From assembly GCA_029582165.1 (NCBI GenBank), contig CM055877.1:24054355-24118354 (forward strand): a DNA stretch of 64,000 nt, written 5' to 3'. The stretch comes from Portulaca oleracea (lineage: Eukaryota > Streptophyta > Magnoliopsida > Caryophyllales > Portulacaceae). Below the pieces are notes generated by a model that saw only the letters and a list, made by a program, of their open reading frames with translations, did no database searches and had not been told where the DNA came from. Of this stretch, positions 478 through 55,497 are shown piece after piece (position 1 is the stretch's first letter; the number at the start of each line of letters is the position of its first letter). A program made the translations under genes and the position numbers.

Positions 478-1640
478 TTGACTTATCTCATCGTAATCAT
501 GATTGTCGTAAATATTGAGAAAGTCATCTATGTGTTGAAGCAAGCTTCCCGTGCTTGGTTTCATCACTTCAGCTTCTTACTCACTCATGTTTTTTTTTTT
601 GTAGCCAGTCAGATCCATCAATGTTTACTAATTTCTCCCACTCCTATATCCTCATTTTGCTCCTTTATGTTGATGACATCATTCTCAGGGAAAAGTCTGA
701 TGCCATAATGCTCTCCTTTATCAGTCTTATTTCCTGTCAGTTTGCCATGAAGGATCTTGGTGACCTTCATTATTTCCTAGGAGTGCAGGTCATTCACTCA
801 TCGGATGTGCTGTTTTTTTTTTCTTCTAATTACAACTCTGACCTAATTCATAAATTTCATATGGATACTTGCAAGTTTACTAGCACTCCTATAGCTGCTT
901 GGATCGCCCTCAATCTCTTGGATGGTGAATTATTTGTTGATCCAACTGAGTATAGGAGTATGGTAGATGTTTTGCAATATTGGACTATAGCTCGACCTGA
1001 TATTACTTATGTAGTTCATGTAGTTTCCCATATTTATGCATGTCTTCCCTACTTCTCATACATCTATTGTCAAGAACATTTGCAGGGTACTGTTGATCAT
1101 GGGATCCTTCTTTGTCCTATCATTGTTCCCTCTATTATTGTTGCATACTCTAACACTAATTGGTCAAGTTGTAAGGACTCATGTCATTCCACCATTGGCT
1201 ATGTGGTGTTTTTTGGCCCCAACTTCATTGCTTAGCGGTCCAAGAAACAACCTAAGGTGTCTAGGTCTTCACATAAATTTGAATGTAGGGTTATTCCCTA
1301 CACCATTGCTGAAACAATTTGGTAAGCAAGTTGTTTTGTGAGTTAGGTATTTCTCTCTCTGCTCTGACTAAGGTATTGTGTCATCACGTCAGTGCTACAT
1401 AACTTACTGCTAATCTTAGTCATTATGAGTGCAGTAACCATATTTTTATTGATTACCACTTTGTTCTTGAGCGTGTTGACCATGGAGATCTCACAGTTCG
1501 CTACATACCTACTAAGCTTCAGTTTGGTGATAGTTTTGCGAAAGGGTTGTGATCTAGTCCCTTTTTTTTTTTCAAAAATCAATTTGTATGTTCGCTCTCC
1601 TCTCTTACTGATTGAGGAGTGTAATAGCAGATAGGATCAT
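478..1640 (+). pseudogene. Ty1/copia reverse transcriptase-RNase H relic
   Basis: Degenerate 3' part of a copia-type pol gene. Reading in order, I see the end of the RT palm as 'VLKQASRAWFHHFS' (family form LKQAPRAWF), the catalytic 'LLYVDDIIL' with the YVDD box, 'MKDLGDLHYFLGVQV', then the connection and RNase H region ('RPDITYVVHVVSH', 'SNTNWSSCKDSCHSTIGYVVFFG', 'RSKKQPKVSRSS') and finally 'DYHFVLERVDHGDL', which matches the usual copia C-terminus. The frame shifts in a T-run near 590-600, a TAG interrupts at about 1234, and more stops and shifts follow, so it cannot encode an active enzyme. Protease, integrase and gag are absent and I see no flanking LTRs. It is a 5'-truncated or fragmented old insertion. 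Confidence 0.9.
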
Positions 1641-1655
1641 CATGTAATGATACTT

Positions 1656-1970
1656 GGATAATTTGCATATACTCTCATTCAGGTTTACAATGTTTATAAA
1701 TCCAACCCTAATGATTTTAAATTAATGTCTACTCACCCTAAGTTCTTGAATCAATTTCATTTAGCTACTTTTTTCCGGTAAATTTAGCAACTTTAGCAAA
1801 TAAATTTCATCACATATCACACATTCACCGAAAAAGTTGCTAAATTTACCGGAAAAATAGCTAAATGAAATTGACTCAAAAATTCAGGATGGGTAAATAT
1901 TAACTTAAAAATATCAGGATTGAATTTATAAACGTCATAGGCCCGAAAGATGGGTATATGCAAATTTTCC
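1656..1970. mobile_element. Foldback MITE (long-TIR, MULE-like)
   Basis: The whole 315-bp element is one imperfect inverted repeat. The left arm begins GGATAATTTGCATATAC and the right arm, read on the other strand, begins GGAAAATTTGCATATAC; pairing continues through 'GTTTATAAATYCAAYCCTRA' and 'TCAATTTCATTTAGCTA' to a core of paired 'GGTAAATTTAGCAACTT' blocks. The flanks are ATGATACTT on the left and ATGATTACTT on the right, an imperfect ~9-10-bp target duplication. That size and the long TIRs fit a Mutator-derived MITE; there is no coding capacity. Confidence 0.75.
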
Positions 1971-2488: not shown

Positions 2489-2836
2489 GTAAGCATCACA
2501 TTTGTGTCTTTCTTCTTCTTCTTCTTCTTCTTGATGTTTTTGGTTGTTTGTAGATTCAAATTCTTGGCAAATGTGGCCCTTTTACACCTTTAAATCCTAA
2601 AGTAGGAAATCAATTGCCCTTTCACCCTTTGTTGAGTTTCTTGTCAATTGTATACTCTTTTTGAAAGGGTTTAATGAACAATTATGCACCCAAAGCATGT
2701 AACAAATTGCAGTCCAAAATCTTTCAACACCCCTACTGAGTATCTAATCTTGGTGAAAGTATAAAACATATTTTTAGGTTAGGTTCTTACCCACTATTAC
2801 TCAATTCTACTTATTATTATCTAAGCATATATAAAT

Positions 2837-3968
2837 GGGTTATTGGATTCTAATAATACGAACTTTGGGCCATATAAGACTTAATAATACAAACTTTGAA
2901 CCCCTGTTGGATACAGTAATACGCCACCGAGTTAGTAATTATTTGACTCGCCGGAAAGATGAGTTGGCAGGCAAAACATGTGTTCTTCCTTGTTTGACCT
3001 TGCCAACTCATCATTTGACCCTAAAAAAGTGTCATGTCAACCCTCTTCTTCATCTTCCTCCCTCTTTCTCTCTCCTCTGTCTCTCCCTATCTCAATAGCA
3101 ATCTGCATAAACTTCCAGAATCCATGACATCAAATGAGAAAGAGCATTACTTACCTCCAACAGATGATGGGTCCTCTTCATATTAAGCCTACAAATATCC
3201 TCACACACAATCTTGACAACCTCAAAGCTCCTCCACCTCTCATGAATTCCATTAACAACCCCCTCAGTAACTGACCTTACCAAGCTTCATCTTACCTTCA
3301 TCCTAATCCCAACAGTTGTCAATCTCCTAATCTCAGACGGGGCCAATGTGAGCTCAGCCAAAGTAGGAGCCTCCTCCTTGTGTTTCTCCATCACCTTGAC
3401 CTCCCTCCTCTCCCTCTTAACCACCCGTCTCAACTCATGAAGCTTTACAATGGCATTCCCCGTGCCAGTCCGAGCAGGTTCTGAGGACTAGACCAACTCG
3501 GGTCCAGCGTATGACCCACACGGTAACTAGGGATTTGGCGGGAAGTAGGGATGAAAATCTCCCCAATTTTGGGGGTTTCTTCATCTTCAGACAACTGGGC
3601 ATTGCTTTCGTTCGTTGGATGTTTTTCGACGAAGCCTAGGGTTCGTAGTTTTTCGGCTATGCGTTGAATTGGAGATTGAAATCGAGATAGAGAGAGACAG
3701 AGGAGAGAGAAAGAGGGAGGAAGATGAAGAAGAGGGCTGACATGGCATTTTTTTAGGGTCAAATGATGAGTTGGCAAGGTCAAACAAGGAAGAACACATG
3801 CCTTGCCTGCCAACTCATCTTTTCGGCGAGTCAAATAATCACTAACTCGGTGGTGTGTTATTGTATCCAACAGGGGGTCAAAGTTCGTATTATTAAGAAT
3901 CAAATCGAAAGTTCGTATTATTAAGTCTTATATGGCCCAAAGTTCGTATTATTAGAATCCAATAACCC
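2837..3968. mobile_element. Pack-MULE (Mutator-like, non-autonomous)
   Basis: A 1132-bp element with TIRs of about 260 bp (outer ends GGGTTATTGGATTCTAATAA) and a perfect 9-bp target duplication TATATAAAT on both sides (2828-2836 and 3969-3977), the Mutator hallmark. Between the TIRs is gene-derived sequence: a piece of a CRM-domain chloroplast splicing-factor gene, read on the - strand, including part of an exon and a splice donor. No transposase is present. It sits in the 5'UTR intron of GRP copy 1. The homologous intron of GRP copy 2 has the uninterrupted target, GCATATATAAATTTA at 25667-25680, so insertion happened after the gene duplication, or the paralogous site was never hit. Confidence 0.93.
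3140..3700 (-). pseudogene. Captured fragment of CFM3-like CRM-domain gene
   Basis: Host gene fragment carried as Pack-MULE cargo. On the - strand, 'SPIQRIAEKLRTLGFVEKH', then 'SRQIPSYRVGHTLDPSWS', 'PTLAELTLAPSEIRRL' and 'GIHERWRSFEVVKIV' with 'LNMKRTHHLLE' follow the order and spacing of the N-terminal region and first CRM domain of the CFM2/CFM3 family, nuclear-encoded proteins that help group II introns splice in chloroplasts. The fragment ends 'LLEG|GTAAGT'-like at an apparent exon/intron border, so genomic DNA rather than cDNA was captured. An in-frame stop and at least one frameshift around 3285 ('ATGAAGGTAAGATGAAG') break it. The assignment rests on motif recall; the break means it should not make a functional protein, although a fused transcript started in the TIR is possible. 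Confidence 0.85.
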
Positions 3969-5020
3969 TATATAAATTTATTTATTTCTTAAAAGAACTC
4001 ATTGCCTACTTTATTTAAACATATTCAAATTTATTAAACCTATATATTCAAGCTTACTTTATCCAATTTCTACATACCAATGGAGAAAATATAGCCAAGT
4101 GTGGAAAGTTTGGGTCAATAAGCTATATTTGTTATAGGAGGTTTGGTACTTACCCTTTTGTTCTCATGTCGTAGAGCTTGTTGGTGACTTTCCTCGAAAT
4201 ATAGGTATAGTGGATGGGTCCATTTAGTGCTTATCTTTCACTTACAATTTATTCTTTTTCAAAAAAAAAAAATTGATCAATTCGGCTGCTACTATCAATT
4301 TCCAAACTCACAGCAAATGTTCAAACTTTGATCGAAATAAAGTCTTTCATGTGTAAATTGTGGTGTTAAATGGTCATGTATATCATGATAGTTTGTTAAT
4401 TACCATTTATCATAATATATAGAATTTAATGATAATTATCCCTCGTATAATAGTTATAATGATGATAACAATGATTTTGGCTTGTGATGGTGATGACTAC
4501 AGTTCTAATCTTGGTTGTGGATTGTTGAACTTCACAAGTACATATACCAGTATATTTGTTTCTGTTGACTTTGAACACCTTGAATTAACATTTGCAAAGG
4601 ATTGTTCTACGAAAGTTGAAATGTTGTATATGTTCTACGGATTTTTTTTAATTATTTATGAATCATTTAATATATGGCTTGGAATATAGAAAGAATGTGA
4701 GTTTATCAGGAAGAATTATTACTGTAAAAGTGGGAAAATATTGTCATGTTCTTGTACTTGTACTAAAGATGCGACAGTCAAGTGACAATCATCTCATTTT
4801 CTATGTTATCCCCCGTCAAGATTCAAGTTTTGGTAGAATTAAGTTAAATATCTATCTCTAAGATAGGGGTTCCGTATGCAGACCAAACTTAACCGATCTT
4901 TAAAATGAAAAAAATAAAAAAGAAATTATGTTATAGTTGTAGTTGGTGTGATTAATGTTACTTGTGGTTGATTAATTATTGATTGACATTGGTAAAAAAA
5001 AATAAAAAAAAATAGGAAGA

Positions 5021-5690
5021 ATGGATGGGAGGCATGGAAATGAGGGGCATGGGCAGCGTGGTCTATATGGTTACGGGGGAGGATACCCACCGGCATATCC
5101 ACCTGTAGCTTATCCTAATTATTCCTATGGTATGTCTATCATTCTCTTCTTCCTCTCTTCTTTGCCATTCAATCATGCAAACATATCATCATTTCATCAT
5201 ATCAATCTAAATGCTTAATTAAGAAATGCATCTTGTTACTCCTAAATTTTACCTAAACTACTACACAATAAGGAATAACAAAGACAAACATATGGCCATA
5301 TACAATGGAACCAATGAGCTCTTGGCTTAGTTGATATTCGCTACACTATGTTGGGATTGAATATGTATATCCACTTATCTAATAACTAATTAAACCCGAT
5401 TGATGCATATATGTTTAACAGGACATGGACCAAGCACAGGAGCAATGTTAGCCGGAGGTGCAGCTGCTGCAGCCGCACTATATGGGGCACATCACCTTTC
5501 ACATGGGCATGGGCATGGGGATGGGCATTATGGTCATTATGGTAATTACGGACATGGGCATTATGGTCATTATGGACACGGGCACGGCTTCTATGGGCAC
5601 CACGGCAAGTTCAAGCACGGAAAATTCAAACATGGCAAATTTGGAAAGCACGGGCATGGCTTCTTTGGTCGTCACAAGATGTGGAAGTGA
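5021..5690 (+). CDS. Gly/His-rich XYPPX protein, GRP A3-like, copy 1
   Basis: Spliced CDS of two coding exons, 5021-5129 and 5422-5690, 125 residues. The ATG follows a 3' splice site (AATAG|GAAGAATG) and the first exon ends TATG|GTATGT; the acceptor is TTTAACAG|GACATG, and joining keeps frame across a split Gly codon. The N-terminus is Gly-rich with a 'GGGYPPAYPPVAYP' proline-tyrosine segment; then comes 'GAMLAGGAAAAAALYGAHHL', a short hydrophobic Ala/Gly stretch, and a C-terminal half made of His-Gly repeats (GHGHYGHYGHGHG) and 'KFKHGKFKHGKFGKHGHG', ending MWK. This architecture is that of the plant glycine-rich protein A3 / XYPPX-repeat family, whose biochemical role is poorly defined; the His density suggests metal binding, which is my inference. 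No signal peptide is visible. Confidence 0.88.
5306..5370 (+). repeat. Truncated SINE-like remnant in GRP copy 1 intron
   Basis: The stretch CCAATGAGCTCTTGGCTTAG followed by 'ATTCGCTACACTATG' matches the head of the SINE at 42804 (CCAATGAGCTCTTAGCTAGG ... 'TCCGCTGCACTGTG'). It has only the A-box side and no tail. The match is short, so this is tentative. Confidence 0.45.
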
Positions 5691-12164: not shown

Positions 12165-15100
12165 TTAATAGTCATCGTTGTCTTCATCGTCCTCATCCAC
12201 TTCATCATCGTCACCATCATTATTTTCGTCATCCTCGATGTCTCCATCGTCTTCATTGGCTACATCGGACGTATTACCACCTACTATTAATTGGGCGTTG
12301 TCCATGTCCGCAACCTCATCAAACACCCCTTCAATAGCAAGTACTTGTGATACGGTACCGGTACCGTCATTGGTGTTGATCGGGACAACAGCTCTTGGTT
12401 GGTCATCTTGGATGGCCAACGGAAAGGGTGAACTGCTTGTACTGTGCATAAGATGGTTTGTTTGGAACCACAACCCACCAGTTAGCTTTATCTCGTATGT
12501 CTGTCGGGTAATTCATGAACAACACTTGGGTTGCGCACCCTACCAAGATGAATGGGTCGTACTTCCAGTACCGTCTGGCCTTGTGTAATTCAACAAACGG
12601 GCATAACCTTGGTGAACGTACACCTCGTACCGGGGTATTGTCAAACCAATCACATCTAAACAGTATGCTCTTCTTGTTGACAGGCCCAACATATTCCAGT
12701 GCGATGACTTCTTGGAGAACACCATAGAAGTCATCGACAAATCCACCGCCACCCGTGCCTTTGACACACACCCCCGCACTATACGAAGCCACTGAGTTAC
12801 TCCTTGCTTGGGTGTGAAATAAGAACCCATTGATTCGATAAGCACTCCACGTGGTCACTTTAGGGGAAGACATTCGGGCTAACTGATAAAGGTGTTTATG
12901 ACGCTCATCTTCGTAAAACCGAAAGGCTTCCCAATTTTCCTACATTTGGAGTAACCATTAGATGTTGAATGGTTTAAGTTTCGTTTAAATATGGTCAAAA
13001 TCGAAATTGTATAAATGATTGTTTTCCTCACAGATAGCTGATAAAACCATTGAGCGAACTCTGCTTCAATCATCTGATCCAATTGAGTGTCCGTAGTGTT
13101 CGGAAATGAAGTCAACTTGTAATTCTTAAACAAACTGCGTGGGATACAAGCTCATTAATTACACCTATAATACATATCAATTTAATGAAGTTGTTAGTGA
13201 GCATTGCTTACTCTAAGTAGTGGTTGACTTCTTTGCAGTTCAGTAGAATGTGAAGGTGTTGTGCTTTATACTCTTGATCGCTGAGCCACCTCATGTTTAC
13301 ACCTCCCACAGGGCTCCCGCTGTCCTTAAAAACCGACAATAACATAGGATCATCCCCATCGTCTTCGTTACGCATACTTGTTGATGTAGAAGACGATACA
13401 TTATCCGTCCCAAAGTATGTAGATGCGAATTGGGAAATCTCAAACATGAGGTACGCTTGAGCCATAGATCCTTCAGGGTGTGCCTTGCTCTTTATTTTTT
13501 TCTTCAACCACCCAAAATACCTCTCAAAGGGATACATCCAACGATATTGAACAGGACCACCAAAGAATGCCTCCTGAACCAGGTGAATGGGCAAGTGTTC
13601 CATTACGTTGAAGAAGCCGGGTGGAAATATGGTCTCCAGCTTGCATATTATTATGGGAATTTCTTTTTCAAGCCGAACTAAGTCACTGTGCTTCAATGTT
13701 GTGAAACACAGGCTCTTGAACCATTGGCTTAACTGAACGAGTGGCTCCAACACATCATCAGGAAGTGTCGGGAACGTAACAGGTAACAATGTCTGCATGA
13801 ACACATAACAGTCATGGCTTTTAAAGTTTTGAAACCTTTTACCTAATGCATCAACACAGTTCGCGAAGTTCGAAGCATAAGCGTCCGGCAAACGAAGCTA
13901 TTGCACCCAGTTACAAGCATCTGTTTCCTTATCCTCAGGAAGAACATATTTGGCTCTTGGCTGTAGGGGTTTACCGTTAGGACCGGGAAATAGATGGAGT
14001 TCCGGCCTGTCACATATGTCCGCCACGTCCCTCCTTGCATTTCCATCATCCTTCGTTTTTCCGTCCACCCCCATCACCGTGTTTACGATGTTGTCCACAA
14101 AGTTCTTCTCAATGAGCATCGCATCTAAGTTGTGTGGAACCATATGATCCTTCCAATAAGGCAACTCCCAAAAGATACTTTGTTTCTTCCAATTATGAGC
14201 ATTCTCTCTGAATCCCGGGACTACAAAGTCGTCATGGGTAGTCACCTTGGGGAAGTGCTTCACCTCCTCGTAGATTTCATAACCGTTTTTCCTACACGGT
14301 GGGGCAGTTTTATCTGGGCAAGTGTGCCCCTTTCGAAATGCCTTTCGATTTCTTCTCAAAGCTTGCCCCTTAGCAAGAAACTGTCGGTGACAGTCAAACC
14401 ACGAGGCTTTCCTCCCATGCTTCAGACGAATTGCTTTCAAACCATCTATGCAAACAGGACAAGACATGGCATCGTGCGTGCTCCACCCAGAAAGCATGCC
14501 AAGGGCCAGAAAATCATTCACCGTCCACATAAAAGATGCCCTCATGTTAAAATTTTGTCTTTTTGGAGATGTCGTATGTTTCAACACCAACCCATAAGCG
14601 TTGCAGCTCGTCCACCAAGGGTTGGAGGAAGACATCAATTTTATTTCCGAGGTTCTTTGGACCTGGAATAATACACGTGAGGAACATGTACGGTGTTGTC
14701 ATGCACAATTCAGGTAGCAAGTTGTAAGGAGTAACTACAACCGGCCATATCGAATAAGACCTCCCTGTCATGTTGAACGGGCTAAACCCATCCGCACACA
14801 GGCCCAGTCTTACATTTCGCGATTCCCCCGTAAAGTCGGGATGCACGATGTCGAACATTTTCCATGAGGCGCCGTCCGACGGATGGCAAAGTACACCTTC
14901 CTCGCGCTTGTTCTCCGCGTGCCATCTCATATGCCTGGCCGTATTCTTCGAGGCATACAGACGCTGCAACCTAGGCGTCAAGGGAAAGTAAAATATTTTC
15001 TTGTACGGGACGCCTTTCTTTGTCGTGGTTGACGATTTTTGTGGCTTATACCTAGGATGGCCACAAAATTTACATTCAGTGAGATGTGCGTCGTCCTTAT

Positions 15101-15818
15101 AGCAGATCATGCATCCACTAAGGCAACAATCAATTGTTTCATAGCTCATCCCCAACTTCATAACCTTCTTTTTCAACTCATCGTAGTTTCTAGGCACTAG
15201 GTTCGGTTTGGAACAACTCTCGCTCATCAGTTCCATGATATCGTTCATTGCCTGCTCCGACAAATTGTGCTTTGACTTCTGACTTATCAGCCTCACGGCA
15301 GTGGACAACTCAGTATGAGTCGCACACCCTTCCCACAGAGGCTGTTGAGCAGATTGAAGCATATCATAAAATTGTTGAGCTCCTGCATTAGGTGCCTCAT
15401 TCTCCATGATGAAATCATTCATCATCTCTTCCGTTCTATCGATGAACGGTGGCTGATTCGGTTCCTCGTTTGTCGGAGGACTACCTGCAAACGGTTCCCA
15501 ATCACCTTCCGCATCGTCACCACTGCCATCCTCATCATCATAGTCACCCCATTCTTCAGCATGGCTCGTCCAACACCAATATTGTTCCATAAACCCTCGC
15601 CGATACAAATGTTCTTTAACTTCATCAGGACTAAATCCGCTCTTATTTTTGCACTTCACACATGGGCACCGATACTTTCCAGTCCTCGGATACTCATACG
15701 AATTACTTTTTGCAAATTGATCAAACATAGCTACCCCAACAGCCCATTCAGCCCTGATAACCCTCCTACCCAGTTCAAACCTCTCGTACATCCAACGGCG
15801 ATGTAGGGGTCCGTCCAT
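12165..15818 (-). pseudogene. CACTA transposase, TNP2 family (DUF4218/DUF4216)
   Basis: Catalytic transposase of the CACTA element. From the ATG at 15818 there is an N-terminal zinc-binding-like segment (CPCVKCKN..), then 'LGLCADGFSPFNMTGRSYSIWPV', 'PGPKNLGNKIDVFLQPLVDEL', 'SGWSTHDAMSCPVCIDGLKA' and 'SWFDCHRQFL', the usual TNP2 core; then a DUF4218-like part (PPGFFNVMEHLPIHLVQEA, YPFERYFGWLK) and a DUF4216-like part (NGFLFHT). An acidic Asp/Glu tail ends at a TAA. I infer introns 13211-13135 (GTAAGC..GCAG) and 13031-12883 (GTGAGG..TCAG), both in phase. A 1-base insertion in an A-run near 14587, an in-frame TAG near 13900 and a frame change near 12440 break the product. Family length and order are otherwise complete. 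Confidence 0.9.
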
Positions 15819-15943
15819 AATGTACGTGAAATCTATTCATGAATTGAATTAATAATAAACATTATTCAATAACGTACTTGATTAAATATTATCAAAATCA
15901 TCCAAACTAAGAATTAATTAAGTTATGTCATCAGGCAAGAAAA

Positions 15944-25666: not shown

Positions 25667-25680
25667 CATATATAAATTTA
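25667..25680. other. Empty target site of the Pack-MULE
   Basis: GCATATATAAATTTA in the copy 2 intron holds a single TATATAAAT, exactly the 9 bases duplicated around the Pack-MULE in copy 1, with aligned flanks on both sides ('ATCT.AGCATATATAAAT' and 'TATTCAAATTTATTAAACC'). It shows the insertion footprint without any database search. Confidence 0.92.
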
Positions 25681-34500: not shown

Positions 34501-37500
34501 TGTAACCACAGATGTTGTTGCCCCCACTCCCTGTGGCACAGTGTTTTCACTCCCCTCCCAGACCCACAAATTGCTGAAATTTTTGCCATCCTTGTTTGAT
34601 ATGGCGAACAGTATATATCATCAATTCCATGTGATCCCTAATAATATACGTACTTTAGTGCCTTATCGAACGTCTTCCCAACACTCGGATCTGAGAAAGG
34701 GAAGCTAAGCCTTGCCAGAGAAAGAAGAGCTCAAATAAATGTCACATCACCTTTTTTTTCATTTATAAATAAATTTTGTGAGTTAAATAAAGAATTTTAA
34801 ATATAAGTTATGTAAAAAAAGGTTAGGTTTGATAAGTAAGGTAATGTAAGGTAAGGTAAAACTAATGCAAGATAAAGTGAGTATTATTTTGATTACTTTT
34901 CTATTACTTTTTTGTATTATTTCTTTTTCAATTCATTAACCTAAACAAATACCCGTTCGAAAGAACGGGCAAAAAGCTACTATTATATAGTTCAACCCAG
35001 AAAAAAGAAAAAAAGAACCCTTAACCCACCAATTTAGACTTTTTTTTTGGCACCCACATCAGTTAAGAGGGAAACAGATACAGAAAAACAGGACCCTTAA
35101 ACACACACAAACACAGATGAACGTACCAGATTTCGATGCTCCAAGGGTCTCTATATATCTCCAAACAGTTGGGGGTACCAAAGATAAGTCTTCTGATGAA
35201 CAGTAGAGGCAAATTCCAGCGATGAGTGCCAATGAAAGTTGAGCAAATATGCCCTCACCCATGGGATATGCAAAATTTCCCAAACCCTGGAAAAATGTAT
35301 CAGCAGCTTCAAGAAATGATCTCAATTTATCATGCCCTGCAAATGGAATATAGTGAACAAGAAGGGCCTCAGCAAGAATCCGAAGCTGCAATGATGTGTC
35401 CGCAGCAGCCGTATAAGCCACTTGATCCCATGTATTATCAACAAGATGAGACAAGACTGCTTCCCTGACAGAAACAACTCTATCAAGTGAAGCTAATTTA
35501 TCAAATGATGGAGAAGCAAGCACAACCCATCCGCCATCCACATTAAGGCCAAGGATCCGACCCAAATGCATAAGGGCAATAAAACGTTGCTCTGGTTCAG
35601 GATGACTCAGCATTTTGGAAACCAATTCAACCAGACATAAACCACTCTCCTGCATAAGGGTTCCTCTTGATAATAAATTCAACAACCACCTATCAGTTTG
35701 CAAGCGCCAAGAAATCTTAGGTGCATTATACATGATTTTCTCAATCGCAGAAGAAAGCCTGCCAACCACACTATCCAGGCTACAAAATGCTGGCAATTTA
35801 AGTAGGCAATCAATCATTGTGGATGCGGCTTCCCAGCATTTCTGCTCCACAACCAAGTTAACACTTTCAGCAACCCCTTGTATGCCCATCTTCCAATGAG
35901 TGTAGACCTCATCAAATGACTTAGTTTTGCACTCTTCAGAAGCTGACAACCCAGATTTTTCAAGCATAACATAGAATAGGCACCTAATATACATTAAACA
36001 CTGTGCAGAAGAGACAGCAATATTCCTTGATAGTTGAGGATGAAGGCTCCAAGTTGACTCAATTGTTGAACAGAGTCTGGAAATGAGATTATCTATGTCC
36101 CCAGACAAACCCTCTACATCTTCAGAGGACAAATGGCGAATGGGGGAGCATTGAGTAGACCTAATGCTCTCATGGTCATCTGACTTTGGTTCCCCTGTTG
36201 GACGGCCATAGCAAAAGTCATCAGGAAACCATGTGTATGATTCGGATCTATTGTATCCAGCCATGTGAATATCGACATCACCAGGCTGAGGCATTGGTAT
36301 AAGACCCACTTGCCTCAAATTTTCCACTAAGAAGGCATTACAACTTTGCAGAAGCAGTTGAAATGAGCACAGGTAATCGTGGAATGTACTTGTAGGCTCA
36401 ACAGCTGCAAAATCAACCCACTTGCAAGAAGCTTGTATGACTTCCCTTTTACATTCTAAAGATAGATCACAAAAGACAGAAGCCAGAACAAATATAATGA
36501 GAGCAACATTGACCCCCTTAGTTGGATGGTCAGGATTCTCATCTCGTCTAATGAATGCAAAGAACTCTTCGAAACACAATGACTCGAAATCAAGACATGA
36601 ATCACCACTCAGATGTTTATCCTCATTAGAAGCCTTGCGTAATGAATATGAAATGATGGGTTTCAGCAACTGCATAACAGAGCTGAGAAATGACACATCA
36701 CAATAAGAGCTTTTGCACAAGGATCCAAGCACCTGAACCAATCTTGGCATCTCAGGAACAGTTGCTTCCATATGCTCACTTACGATAGCTTCAAGTATAT
36801 ATAGGATTATTGCCTTGGCATTCTTCAGATTGTAACCTTTAACGGGAGGAAAGCCGTCATGTTTCTGGTTCATCTTATGCTGGAAGGGTGACAAACATAG
36901 ATCAGAGAACCAGCACAAGATATCAGGAACTGTAGTGGACGGAAGAGATCTTAACTGCAATGCAACAGCCTCTAAAATACTCTCCCTAAAAGCTTTAAAT
37001 TCTCTGTGCATTTCAGGAAAGAGGAAACTTAATTCTGGATAAAGTACACTAAAAGACTGGTCAAGATATTTATCCCGGAAAACTTTATCCTCCATCTTGG
37101 TCTCTTGTTTCATTTGCAACTCCTTCATTTTCACACCTTCTTGCTTAAGATCTCCAACAGAGTCCAACCCAGCCAGGTCATCAGCAAATATAGATAACAG
37201 ATCTGCCAATTGTGGCAGATTAGAAGTAAGGAAGAGGTGTTGAACCAGGTATCCTTGAGCATTTCGTGCTATTGCCATCCAACCAAGAAAGCGGACTAGC
37301 GGAAAAGGCGAAGAAGAAAACGTTGGAATTTTGCATATCCAAGCTACTGAAGGAATCAAATTGCTATATTGAAAACCTCGCACATTTAATACATCATTAT
37401 ATCTGTTACTTCCACCACTTGAAGCAATCACCAAGCTTTGAAGAATAGTCCAATGCCTTTGCACCCTATATATCTTTTCTGCACTTAGTTGCTGAAGCCC

Positions 37501-38747
37501 CTCTTTGTACTGCTGGAAAATGGAGGTTAATAACTTGTTAAGGTGTACAGCTGAGCCTAATATAATTTCAATCACTTGTTCAGGAGGGCAAGCAAGCTTA
37601 GTGGAAGACTGTAACAAAAACAAGAGAGCCTGCATTAGAGTTTCATGTAATGATTGGTGCTCACTACATAATCGATGGGTCAAAAATTTGCACAGCAATG
37701 CTTGGTTTCTTCGAACCAATGTTACTGCATCCACAGAATCACTATCCTTTTCAGCCAAAATTCCAACCTCATCATCAGCATCAGAACCATAAGGGCGGTC
37801 CTCTCCATTGGACGTATTCTGGTAATAACGCCTGTCCATTTCAGCAGCCTCAAGCAATATTTGGATGAACACTTTGTCTCTTTTCCTCTCAAGGTAACTT
37901 ACTGTCCGTAGATTGCATCGGCCTTTGCCTAACACTTTCCTAAGTTCTGATATTTCAAGGTTGCCTGGAAATTTAGCCCCGTACAAATTCATTTGATTTT
38001 GCGTCATTATATGCTCTTTAGCAAACGTCCTAAAGAAGGGATTAATATAGCATTCTGCAGACAAGATCAAAGCATCTATAGCAGCATTATGACCCTCAAG
38101 GTTAATGTTATCATGAGAATGTAAATCCAATGCTAACTTTTGGAACTTGGATGCTCGGGATTCACAATCTTCATAGTCCAAAAGGAGTGCATAATCAGCT
38201 TGCAAGCTGAAGTACTTCATGGAAGATCCAGAATCAAAGATGGCACCACGGGGAACTTTCATACTCAAATCTTTTCTAGGACCTGGTTCATCAGCATCAT
38301 TGGGATCTGAACAACTTATCTGTACCCCATTTTTGCCCGCGTTTGCAACTGAATTTGTCAAAGATAGATTCATCAACTCTTGTGGGGCAAATAAGAGACT
38401 AGCATCTTCGAGAATGTCTACTTTGCTGGGACCATCTGCACCTCCATCACTGTCATCTTGGCCAGTGGTCTTCAGAGAACTTCCTCCAGAAGGCACGTCG
38501 GATGAAGAAAGGTTGGAAGTCGTTTCATCAGGCTTGGAGAAAGATGACTTGCAATTGTCAACCTCGGGGGGCAATTGCAAGTGAGGGTCCAAAATGGAGA
38601 GAATAACACTGTTGAAATATCGTCACCGAAAAAAAAAGGACACTCAGATACAATTTATGGAACAGGTCATTCAGCTAGCAACTTAATCAACATTCATCAT
38701 ACATCCTTTCTTTTTCCTTTTTCTTCCCCCTTTTTTGGGGGGTGGTG

Positions 38748-53039: not shown

Positions 53040-55497
53040 TACGTGAAGATCATGGATACTTCATCAATTGGAATAATGAACAAAGGAGATATATGCCTTG
53101 CAAACAGTGCGACAACACACACTATTCTGAAAAATAAAAAATAAAAAGTATTTTTTTTGTTTATTGATGCAAGAAGCAAATGTTAGTGCTATATCGGGTA
53201 GTTCAAATTTAATTGAAGGCTCCGGAAGAGCTCATATAGTACTACCTGGTGGAACATATCTTCACATAGATAATGCATTATATTCCACTAAGACTCAAAA
53301 AAACTTATTAAGTTTCAAGGATATTCGCAGAAATGGATATCACATTGAGACAACTAGTGCAAATAACGTTGAATGTTTGATTATTAAGTTTGTACTAGGC
53401 AAAAGATGTGTGTTGGAAAAATTACCATCATTATCATCAGGGTTATAATTCACAAATATTAGCCCTATTGAAGCACATACTCTAGTAAACCAGAAGTTTA
53501 CTAATGAAAAGGAGTTTATCATGTGGCATGATAAATTGGGGCATCCCGAATCAACAATGATGCGAAAAATCATAAAGAACTCATATGGATATACTTTAAG
53601 GGACCAGAAGATCCTTCAAACTAATGAGTTCTCATGCGCCGCCTGCTCTCAAGGAAAATTAATCATAAGGTCATCACCAGCTAAGATAGGGGTTGAACAC
53701 CTTTCATTCTTGGAATGTATACAATGTGACATTTGTGGTCCTGTAGACCCACCATGTGGACCATTTAGATATTTTAATGATTTTAGGTGATGCATCAACA
53801 AGATGGTCACATGTGTGTTTATTGTCAACCCGCAACTTGGCATTTGCAAGATTGCTTGCTCAATTGATTAAGTTACGAACACACTTTTCAGATCATTCAA
53901 TCAAGAAAATTTATCTTGACAATGCTAGTGAATTTACATTCAAAGTCTTTAATGACTATTGCATGTCAATTGGCATAGAGGCTGAACATCTTGTGCCACA
54001 TGTTCATACACAGAATGGCCTTGCAGAATCATTTATCAAACGGTTGCAATTAATTGCAAGACCATTACTTATGAGAGCAAAGCTTCGAACCTGTGCTTGG
54101 GGGCATGCCATATTGCATGCCGCAGCATTGATCCGAATAAAGCCAACAGGTTATCATGAATGTTCTCCCTTACAATTGGTTTCAGGCCATGAACCAAATA
54201 TACCCCATCTACAAACTTTTGGATGTGCAGTGTATGTATCTGTTGCCCCACCACAACGCACCAAGACGGGACCCCAAAGAAGTTTGGGAATATATGTTGA
54301 ATATGAATCTCCATTTATAATTAAATATCTCGAACCTCTAACTGGAGATATGTTTACGGCACGGTTTGCTGATTGTCACTTTAATGAAATAGTTTTCCCA
54401 ACATTAGGGGAGAAACTAAGCAGTCGGACAAGGAGATAAATTGGAATGGATTATCACATATGCATCTAGATCCTCGTACAAAGGAGTATGAACTGGAAGT
54501 TCAAAACATAATTCATTTACAAGCTTTAGTAAATCAATTGCCAGACGCTTTTACTGACCCACAGAGAGTTACTAAATCCTATGTCCTAGCGGCTAATGCT
54601 CCTATTAGAATTGATGTCCCAGTAGGACAACATGTTATTGCTATTGCCAAAGAGTCGAGACCACAATTAAAGCATGGTCGACCAGCAGGTTCCAAAGACA
54701 AAAATCCTCGGAAAAGAAAAGGAGCACATGATCATGATAACCAACATGAGGAAACATTGACTCCATAAGAGTCCCCAGACATGACAAATGTGGGAGTTGC
54801 ACCACAAGATCAGGTACCTGAAAATCGCGAAAATGATGAGATCTCAATCAATTATGTCATGACTGGGATGAAGTATTTTCATATAATGCAGCGCTCACTA
54901 TTATGAATGAAAACGAGGATCATGAACCTAGGTCAGTTGAGGAATGCAGACAAAGAGATGATTGGCCAAAATGGAAAGATGCAATTAAAGCATAATTAGA
55001 TTCGCTTACAAAAACGAAGTATTTGGACCAGTAGTCCATACACCAAGAAGTATAAAACCTGTGGGATTCAAATGGGTCTTTGTACATAAATGAAATGAGA
55101 AAAATGAGATTGTGAGACATAAAGCACGCTTAGTTGCACAAGGGTTTTCGCAAAAACCAGGTATCGACTATGAGGAAACATACTCCCCTGTAGTTGATGC
55201 TACTACATTTCGATACCTTTTAAGTCTAGCAGTACATGAAAAGCTCACTATGCATCTTACAGCTTATTTATATGGAAAAACTTAATAACGACATTTACGT
55301 GAAACTCCCTGAAGGATTTAAGTTGCCCGAAGCACACAGCAAAAACCCGCGAGAGCTTTACTCAATCAAGTTGAACAGATCTCTATATGGGTTAAAACAA
55401 TCTGGACGCATGTGTTATAATCGTCTTAGTGAGTATTTATTGAAAGAAGGATATATAAATGATCATGTTTGCCCATTGTTGAAAGTGAAATTTTAAC
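53040..55497 (+). pseudogene. Ty1/copia pol relic, gag deleted
   Basis: TNT1-94-like polyprotein region. Protease remnant ('LANSATTHTIL' where the family has Asp instead of Asn), a gag-pre-integrase with HHCC zinc finger (WHDKLGHPE...CAACSQGK), integrase core with 'QCDICGP', 'YLDNASEF' and 'NGLAESF' (the D,D,E acidic residues), then the RT start ('[19 protein letters not shown]'-like and 'SLYGLKQSGRMCYNRLSEYL'). It stops before the YxDD box. Gag is missing: the leader passes almost directly to the protease. A 1-base shift near 53780 and stops at about 53445, 54439 and 54766 disrupt it. It lies head-to-head with the large gene, about 300 bp from its start. Confidence 0.88.

What the first reader, a model, noticed from the sequence alone, without database searches (positions are those of the whole stretch)
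2837..3968. Pack-MULE with a captured chloroplast splicing-factor fragment and an empty-site control in the same window
The element has ~260-bp TIRs, a perfect 9-bp TSD and host-gene cargo recognisable as the start of a CFM3-like CRM-domain gene, including an exon/intron boundary. The homologous intron of the GRP paralog carries the unduplicated 9-mer with aligned flanks. Seen: TIR, TSD, empty site. Established: Mutator elements make 9-bp TSDs and Pack-MULEs capture gene fragments. Inference: capture was from genomic DNA, after the GRP duplication or in one copy only.
Basis: partly seen in the sequence, partly recalled or inferred. Interest (0 to 1): 0.78.

Follow-up and report, generated by a model that had tools for sequence, protein, structure and literature searches.

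The report
Jumping gene carrying CFM2 gene piece
A small Mutator-type transposon that had copied a piece of a chloroplast-splicing gene landed in an intron of a plant gene; it is a clear, well-controlled example of a known kind, and its family sits almost only on about half of the genome, as expected if the plant descends from a hybrid of two species.

Summary
Window 2837-3968 is a 1,132-bp element with ~271/299-bp inverted repeats, a perfect 9-bp target duplication and a host-gene fragment with an exon/intron boundary. The site is empty in three relatives (one in the window, two on contig C4). The cargo (~574 bp, minus strand) matches a gene at C16 (96%) and C26 (94%) that lacks the repeats there. 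That gene has four CRM domains, so it is CFM2-like, not CFM3-like. At least seven full-length copies share the same capture junctions: one DNA-level capture, then transposition; this site is one landing, not the place of capture. The TIR family is large (775 terminal ends) and also carries trihelix-type, RCC1 and chloroplast ATP-synthase b' fragments. 76 of 78 exact 76-bp ends lie on 12 contigs (51% of the genome), suggesting one progenitor of an allopolyploid. In 4 of 5 donor pairs the cargo is closer to the copy on those contigs; one pair goes the other way. A six-base donor string at both inner repeat ends hints at how capture happened. No transposase partner was found, and the transposase search did not complete. 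The window cargo is frame-broken and antisense to CFM2 inside the host intron; any function is untested. New member of a known kind.

The parts
2828..2836 (+). left target-site duplication TATATAAAT
2837..3103 (+). left TIR (pairing with the right TIR runs to about 3107)
3104..3154 (-). cargo: first ~51 bp of intron 1 of the CFM2-like gene
   Evidence: alignment with C16 and C26 genes
3155..3677 (-). cargo: most of exon 1 of the CFM2-like gene, without about its first 76 codons; reading frame broken in this copy
3678..3968 (-). right TIR (pairing begins at about 3670)
3969..3977 (+). right target-site duplication TATATAAAT
2489..5015 (+). inferred 5'-UTR intron of the glycine/histidine-rich protein gene, the host of the insertion
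   Evidence: splice-site dinucleotides conserved in the four aligned loci (positions); no transcript seen
5021..5690 (+). coding exons of the host gene (5021-5129 and 5422-5690), 125 aa, intact
   Evidence: no Pfam family
25669..25677 (+). unoccupied target 9-mer in the tandem paralogue

Best explanation
A non-autonomous Mutator-like element of the Pack-MULE kind. Shown by sequence: a TIR element acquired ~574 bp of a CFM2-like gene, exon and intron together, once; at least seven full-length copies with the same junctions exist, with different target sites; this one lies in the inferred leader intron of a glycine/histidine-rich protein gene with a 9-bp duplication, and three relatives are empty. 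Inferred: capture by gap filling or template switching primed by a few matching bases; movement by a MULE transposase acting in trans; spread of the family in one diploid progenitor before its genome was joined with the other. The window copy is most likely an inert passenger today.
For: TIRs and TSD. Donor loci without TIRs. Seven full-length copies; junction string found 13 times, in these seven copies only. Of 32 fetched loci with family ends, 27 had both ends; 20 of 27 have perfect 9-bp TSDs, 4 one mismatch, 3 none (some are simple A/T runs); of the six other CFM2 copies 4 are perfect, 1 has one mismatch, and 1 (L013) fits only with a one-base shift. Empty sites. Family bias to 12 contigs, 76 of 78 ends.
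Against: No autonomous partner: the two longest family elements looked at (L031, 5.1 kb; L057, 4.3 kb) had no Pfam match in the 10 open frames scanned, and the transposase search did not complete. The allopolyploid reading has no progenitor genome behind it; the 12-contig set was chosen after seeing the counts. One of five donor pairs (L029 type) favours the other copy. The place and order of capture are inferred.
Confidence: 0.9

Rival explanations
1. Capture by tandem insertion and joint re-mobilisation of two elements flanking the gene piece, the model proposed for Pack-CACTA and extended to other Pack-TYPE elements (PMC8903248, passages).
For: Proposed there as general for TIR elements. 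Would also give one capture followed by copies.
Against: Here both TIRs stop at the same inner base and carry the same six donor bases; outer TIR ends and TSD remnants, expected at the cargo edges under that model, are not seen at the junctions.
Confidence: 0.1
2. The inserted cargo now acts on CFM2: the host gene's pre-mRNA carries antisense CFM2 sequence in its intron, which feeds small RNAs that lower CFM2.
For: Cargo is antisense in the host transcript's direction; the window copy shares 363 perfect 21-mers with the C16 gene and 223 with C26, longest perfect block 150 nt. PMC8277862 (passages) cites such regulation for Pack-MULEs.
Against: No expression or small-RNA data. Copies differ star-like with about 2.3% private change and the window frame is broken, as for unselected passengers.
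Confidence: 0.06
3. The element captured a mosaic of the two gene copies, or the C16 and C26 genes exchanged a piece later.
For: The copies agree with C16 at 20 of 21 differing sites in the first part and with C26 at 7 of 8 in the last ~60 bp (Fisher p 3.9e-5, split chosen after seeing the data).
Against: C16 carries family ends or cargo copies along its length (1.87, 10.99, 29.24, 29.31, 36.78 Mb). The atpG cargo shows a similar local run, so local change in the C16-type genes after capture is simpler.
Confidence: 0.07
4. Capture from a processed transcript (RNA level).
For: None found.
Against: All seven copies include intron sequence past the splice donor; an unspliced pre-mRNA is not strictly excluded.
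Confidence: 0.02

Closest known systems
Pack-MULEs of rice, Arabidopsis, tomato (PMC3310237, passages; Jiang 2004 cited there and in PMC8903248, not read)
   Same: Long TIRs, 9-11-bp TSD, host-gene fragments, multicopy cargo families, cargo sometimes inside extended TIRs; element size close to the 1,000-1,200-bp peak given for tomato
   Different: Here one TIR family is concentrated on 12 contigs and the junctions carry the same six donor bases at both inner TIR ends; whether others do was not examined
PM-ZIBP Pack-MULE family of tomato (PMC3310237, passages)
   Same: One captured gene fragment, 14 copies, traceable parental gene
   Different: Most of its copies have tandem TIRs; none of the seven here was seen to
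Pack-TIRs of animals, gap-filling and FoSTeST models (PMC8277862, passages)
   Same: Short shared sequence at breakpoints (median 2 bp there; AA and TGCA here)
   Different: Animal hosts; that paper leaves open whether the models hold for plant Pack-MULEs
Pack-CACTA and other Pack-TYPE elements (PMC8903248, passages)
   Same: Non-autonomous TIR elements carrying gene pieces, some from several loci, as in L039/L064 here
   Different: Capture by tandem insertion proposed; not favoured by the junctions here

Membership tests
Pack-MULE | Long terminal inverted repeats | tested here: met
   ~271/299 bp
Pack-MULE | 9-11-bp target-site duplication | tested here: met
   Perfect 9 bp here; family 20 of 27 perfect, 4 of 27 one mismatch, 3 of 27 none; 5 further loci had no paired ends
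Pack-MULE | Carries a host-gene fragment with an identifiable parental gene lacking TIRs | tested here: met
   C16 and C26 loci; no TIR match in L009, L010
Pack-MULE | No transposase inside | tested here: met
   Cargo is fully accounted for by TIRs and CFM2 sequence
Pack-MULE | TIRs shared with a MULE (mudrA-type) transposase element | tested here: inconclusive
   PF10551 search asked nine times, never answered (last); 10 open frames of L031 and L057 had no Pfam match
Pack-MULE | Moved by transposition to different sites | tested here: met
   Seven copies on six contigs with different flanks; three empty sites
CFM2 (donor gene) | Four CRM domains (PMC9275481 passages) | tested here: met
   Four stretches of PF01985 in the hand-joined open frames of the C16 gene
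CFM2 (donor gene) | Orthology by tree | not tested
   Only names: 7 of 52 protein hits carry a source name, two of them CFM2-type, none CFM3; the length limit kept full-length proteins out
   Four found

The most novel reading that the evidence does not exclude
The junctions record how the capture was made: both broken inner TIR ends invaded the same donor site (sharing AA, reading AATCTGCA), one was extended only six bases (TCTGCA), the other about 570, and the two were joined through the palindrome TGCA. Pack-MULE capture would then be a two-ended, same-site repair made possible by two identical long TIRs, and its footprint can be looked for across the family's other cargoes.
Probability: 0.3. 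Interest if true: 0.5.

Novelty: new member of a known kind. Interest (0 to 1): 0.36.

Why it matters
Donor gene, seven copies, empty sites and capture junctions are all in one assembly. How MULEs acquire sequence is called not yet understood in PMC3310237 (passages, 2012), and PMC8277862 (passages, 2021) leaves its models untested for plants; the shared six bases give a specific footprint to test. The bias to 12 contigs makes the family a possible marker for one progenitor of a polyploid, and its cargoes are copies of that progenitor's genes frozen at different times.

Tried and rejected
Capture from a spliced transcript: rejected, intron present. Exchange of chromosome ends between C16 and C26: first suggested by the mosaic count, set aside when C16 proved to carry family ends or cargo copies along its length and the atpG cargo showed a similar local run; not excluded. 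That every cargo comes from the copy on the 12 contigs: cut back to 4 of 5 pairs. A coding role of the window cargo: frame broken; copy L014 keeps a 274-codon open stretch; no formal selection test was made. Autonomous partner: no Pfam match in 10 open frames of L031 and L057; PF10551 query unanswered. PDB search with the captured CFM2 part: no hit at E 0.1. The 29-kb C16/C26 comparison gave no marker of origin.

Full report
Observation. The window lies in a 1.13-Gb genome of 63 contigs (C10:24,054,355-24,118,354). The element at 2837-3968 has outer TIR arms of 61 nt at 98% and inner arms of 228 nt at 93%, a perfect 9-bp duplication TATATAAAT, and terminal 24-mers that occur nowhere else in the window. 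It sits in what I infer to be the 5'-UTR intron (2489-5015) of a glycine/histidine-rich protein gene. The splice dinucleotides are kept in the four aligned loci, and the coding sequence (5021-5129 joined to 5422-5690, 125 aa) is intact. No transcript was seen.

Empty sites. The joined flanks align across the site in three relatives: the tandem paralogue in the window (9-mer at 25669-25677), the closest C4 homologue (89-90% identical) and a second C4 paralogue, whose 9-mer has one mismatch. The insertion is therefore younger than the tandem duplication and the C10/C4 split. Intron divergence between C10 and C4 is 105 of 1,339 sites, 8.3% after correction.

Donor. Element positions 268-841 match C16:40,133,283 (96%) and C26:402,790 (94%); neither locus has a TIR match. 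The cargo is most of exon 1, without about the first 76 codons if translation starts at the first ATG of the open frame, plus ~51 bp of intron 1. The hand-joined open frames of the C16 gene carry four CRM domains. PMC9275481 (passages) gives four for CFM2 and three for CFM3. Of 52 protein hits 7 carry a source name, two CFM2-type and none CFM3; full-length proteins were outside that search's length limit. Hence CFM2-like; no tree was made.

One capture, seven copies. Full-length copies lie on C2, C5, C6, C8, C10 (two) and C15 (which scored 40 of 2,312 candidates). All seven share the inner junctions. The junction string, searched through the genome at up to one mismatch, occurs 13 times, in these seven copies only; the fourteenth, the window's left one, has diverged. 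The copies show 147 singleton and 20 informative changes over the element, several of the latter in an indel-rich stretch. Private divergence is 92 of 4,017 cargo sites and 96 of 3,993 TIR sites, 2.3-2.4%. Against about 4.1% per lineage since the C10/C4 split, the burst falls a little past halfway back. Transitions outnumber transversions 138 to 50, so methylation may make the copies look older.

Junctions. Most of the other family members printed read GATTTCAAGCTAGCC at the inner TIR end; several have other inner ends. The CFM2 copies read GATTTCAATCTGCA at both ends, apart from later single changes. The donor reads CCAAAATCTGCAATTC at one edge and TTTATGCATTTC at the other. So TIR and donor share AA at the first edge, the donor string TCTGCA stands at both ends, and the second edge is joined at TGCA. 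Two-ended invasion of one donor site explains this; TIR homogenisation after capture would too.

The family. The terminal 31-mer occurs 775 times at up to two mismatches, against 0 for the reversed control (only the first 100 places were listed: C1, C2, C3 and C5, none on C4). A 76-bp exact end occurs 78 times, all listed: C1 4, C2 13, C3 8, C5 8, C6 3, C7 1, C8 2, C10 5, C13 5, C15 10, C16 4, C18 9, C21 1, C24 5. So 76 of 78 lie on 12 contigs that make up 51% of the bases, and none on C4, C9, C17 or C26. The set was chosen after seeing the counts; the chance of no C4 place among those first 100 is about 6e-12 if ends were independent, which paired ends are not. The simplest reading is an allopolyploid in which the family spread in one progenitor (A). 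No progenitor genome was seen.

Other cargoes. A Myb/SANT (trihelix-type) gene piece (L034 type; gene loci L058/L059); an RCC1-repeat gene piece (L060/L061) fused with a chloroplast ATP synthase b' piece (L062/L063) in L039 and L064; and a piece of unidentified origin (L029 type; loci L065/L066). L058, L059, L061-L063, L065 and L066 have no TIR match; L060 has only short matches to the CT-rich part. At sites where the two gene copies differ, the copies' majority letter agrees with the A or the B copy: CFM2 21/8; trihelix 35/4; RCC1 49/8; atpG 31/18; L029 type 10/17. Four of five favour A. The L029 type also has 33 element-only changes in 559 sites and may be an older capture. Other subfamilies seen were not traced to donors.

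Against and unexplained. Seven of the eight C16-private sites lie in the last ~60 bp of the cargo, and atpG shows a similar run. Local change in the A genes after capture is the plain reading. Four of seven copies (window, L011, L012, L015) have different small changes at one stretch. No autonomous partner was found: 10 open frames of the 5.1-kb L031 and 4.3-kb L057 had no Pfam match, and the PF10551 search did not complete.

Function. The window copy's frame is broken. The cargo is antisense to CFM2 in the direction of the host transcript, with 363 perfect 21-mers to the C16 gene and 223 to C26. Without RNA data this is a possibility only.

Literature. I read passages of PMC8277862, PMC8903248, PMC3310237, PMC13317346 and PMC9275481; other papers were seen only in listings. 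I do not claim that the chromosome bias or the junction pattern is absent from print.

Noticed in passing
seven CFM2 copies, cargo stretch CCTGTTCCGGACCCTGG: Four of seven copies (window, L011, L012, L015) carry different small scrambles or indels at this one stretch, as if it were a slippage or repair hot spot.
   Followed up: no
L039 and L064 (C3:16.2 Mb, C24:32.06 Mb): Family elements with a two-gene cargo: an RCC1-repeat gene piece next to a chloroplast ATP synthase b' piece.
   Followed up: partly
window 13211-15836, minus strand: Open frames with Transposase_21 (tnp2), Transpos_assoc and DUF4218 domains, a CACTA-type transposon (domains; CACTA label recalled).
   Followed up: no
window 519-1232 and 53747-54436, plus strand: Copia-type retrotransposon remnants: RVT_2 and SH3_retrovirus domains (Copia label recalled).
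   Followed up: no
window 35062-38622, minus strand: Open frame of 1,187 codons without a Pfam family at E 0.001.
   Followed up: no
window 1675-1950: Another inverted repeat, 98-nt arms 78% complementary with an 80-nt loop, MITE-like.
   Followed up: no
C16 CFM2 gene, intron 1, about 130 bp past the captured end: An insertion of about 1.2 kb absent from the C26 gene; looks like other mobile DNA, not searched.
   Followed up: partly
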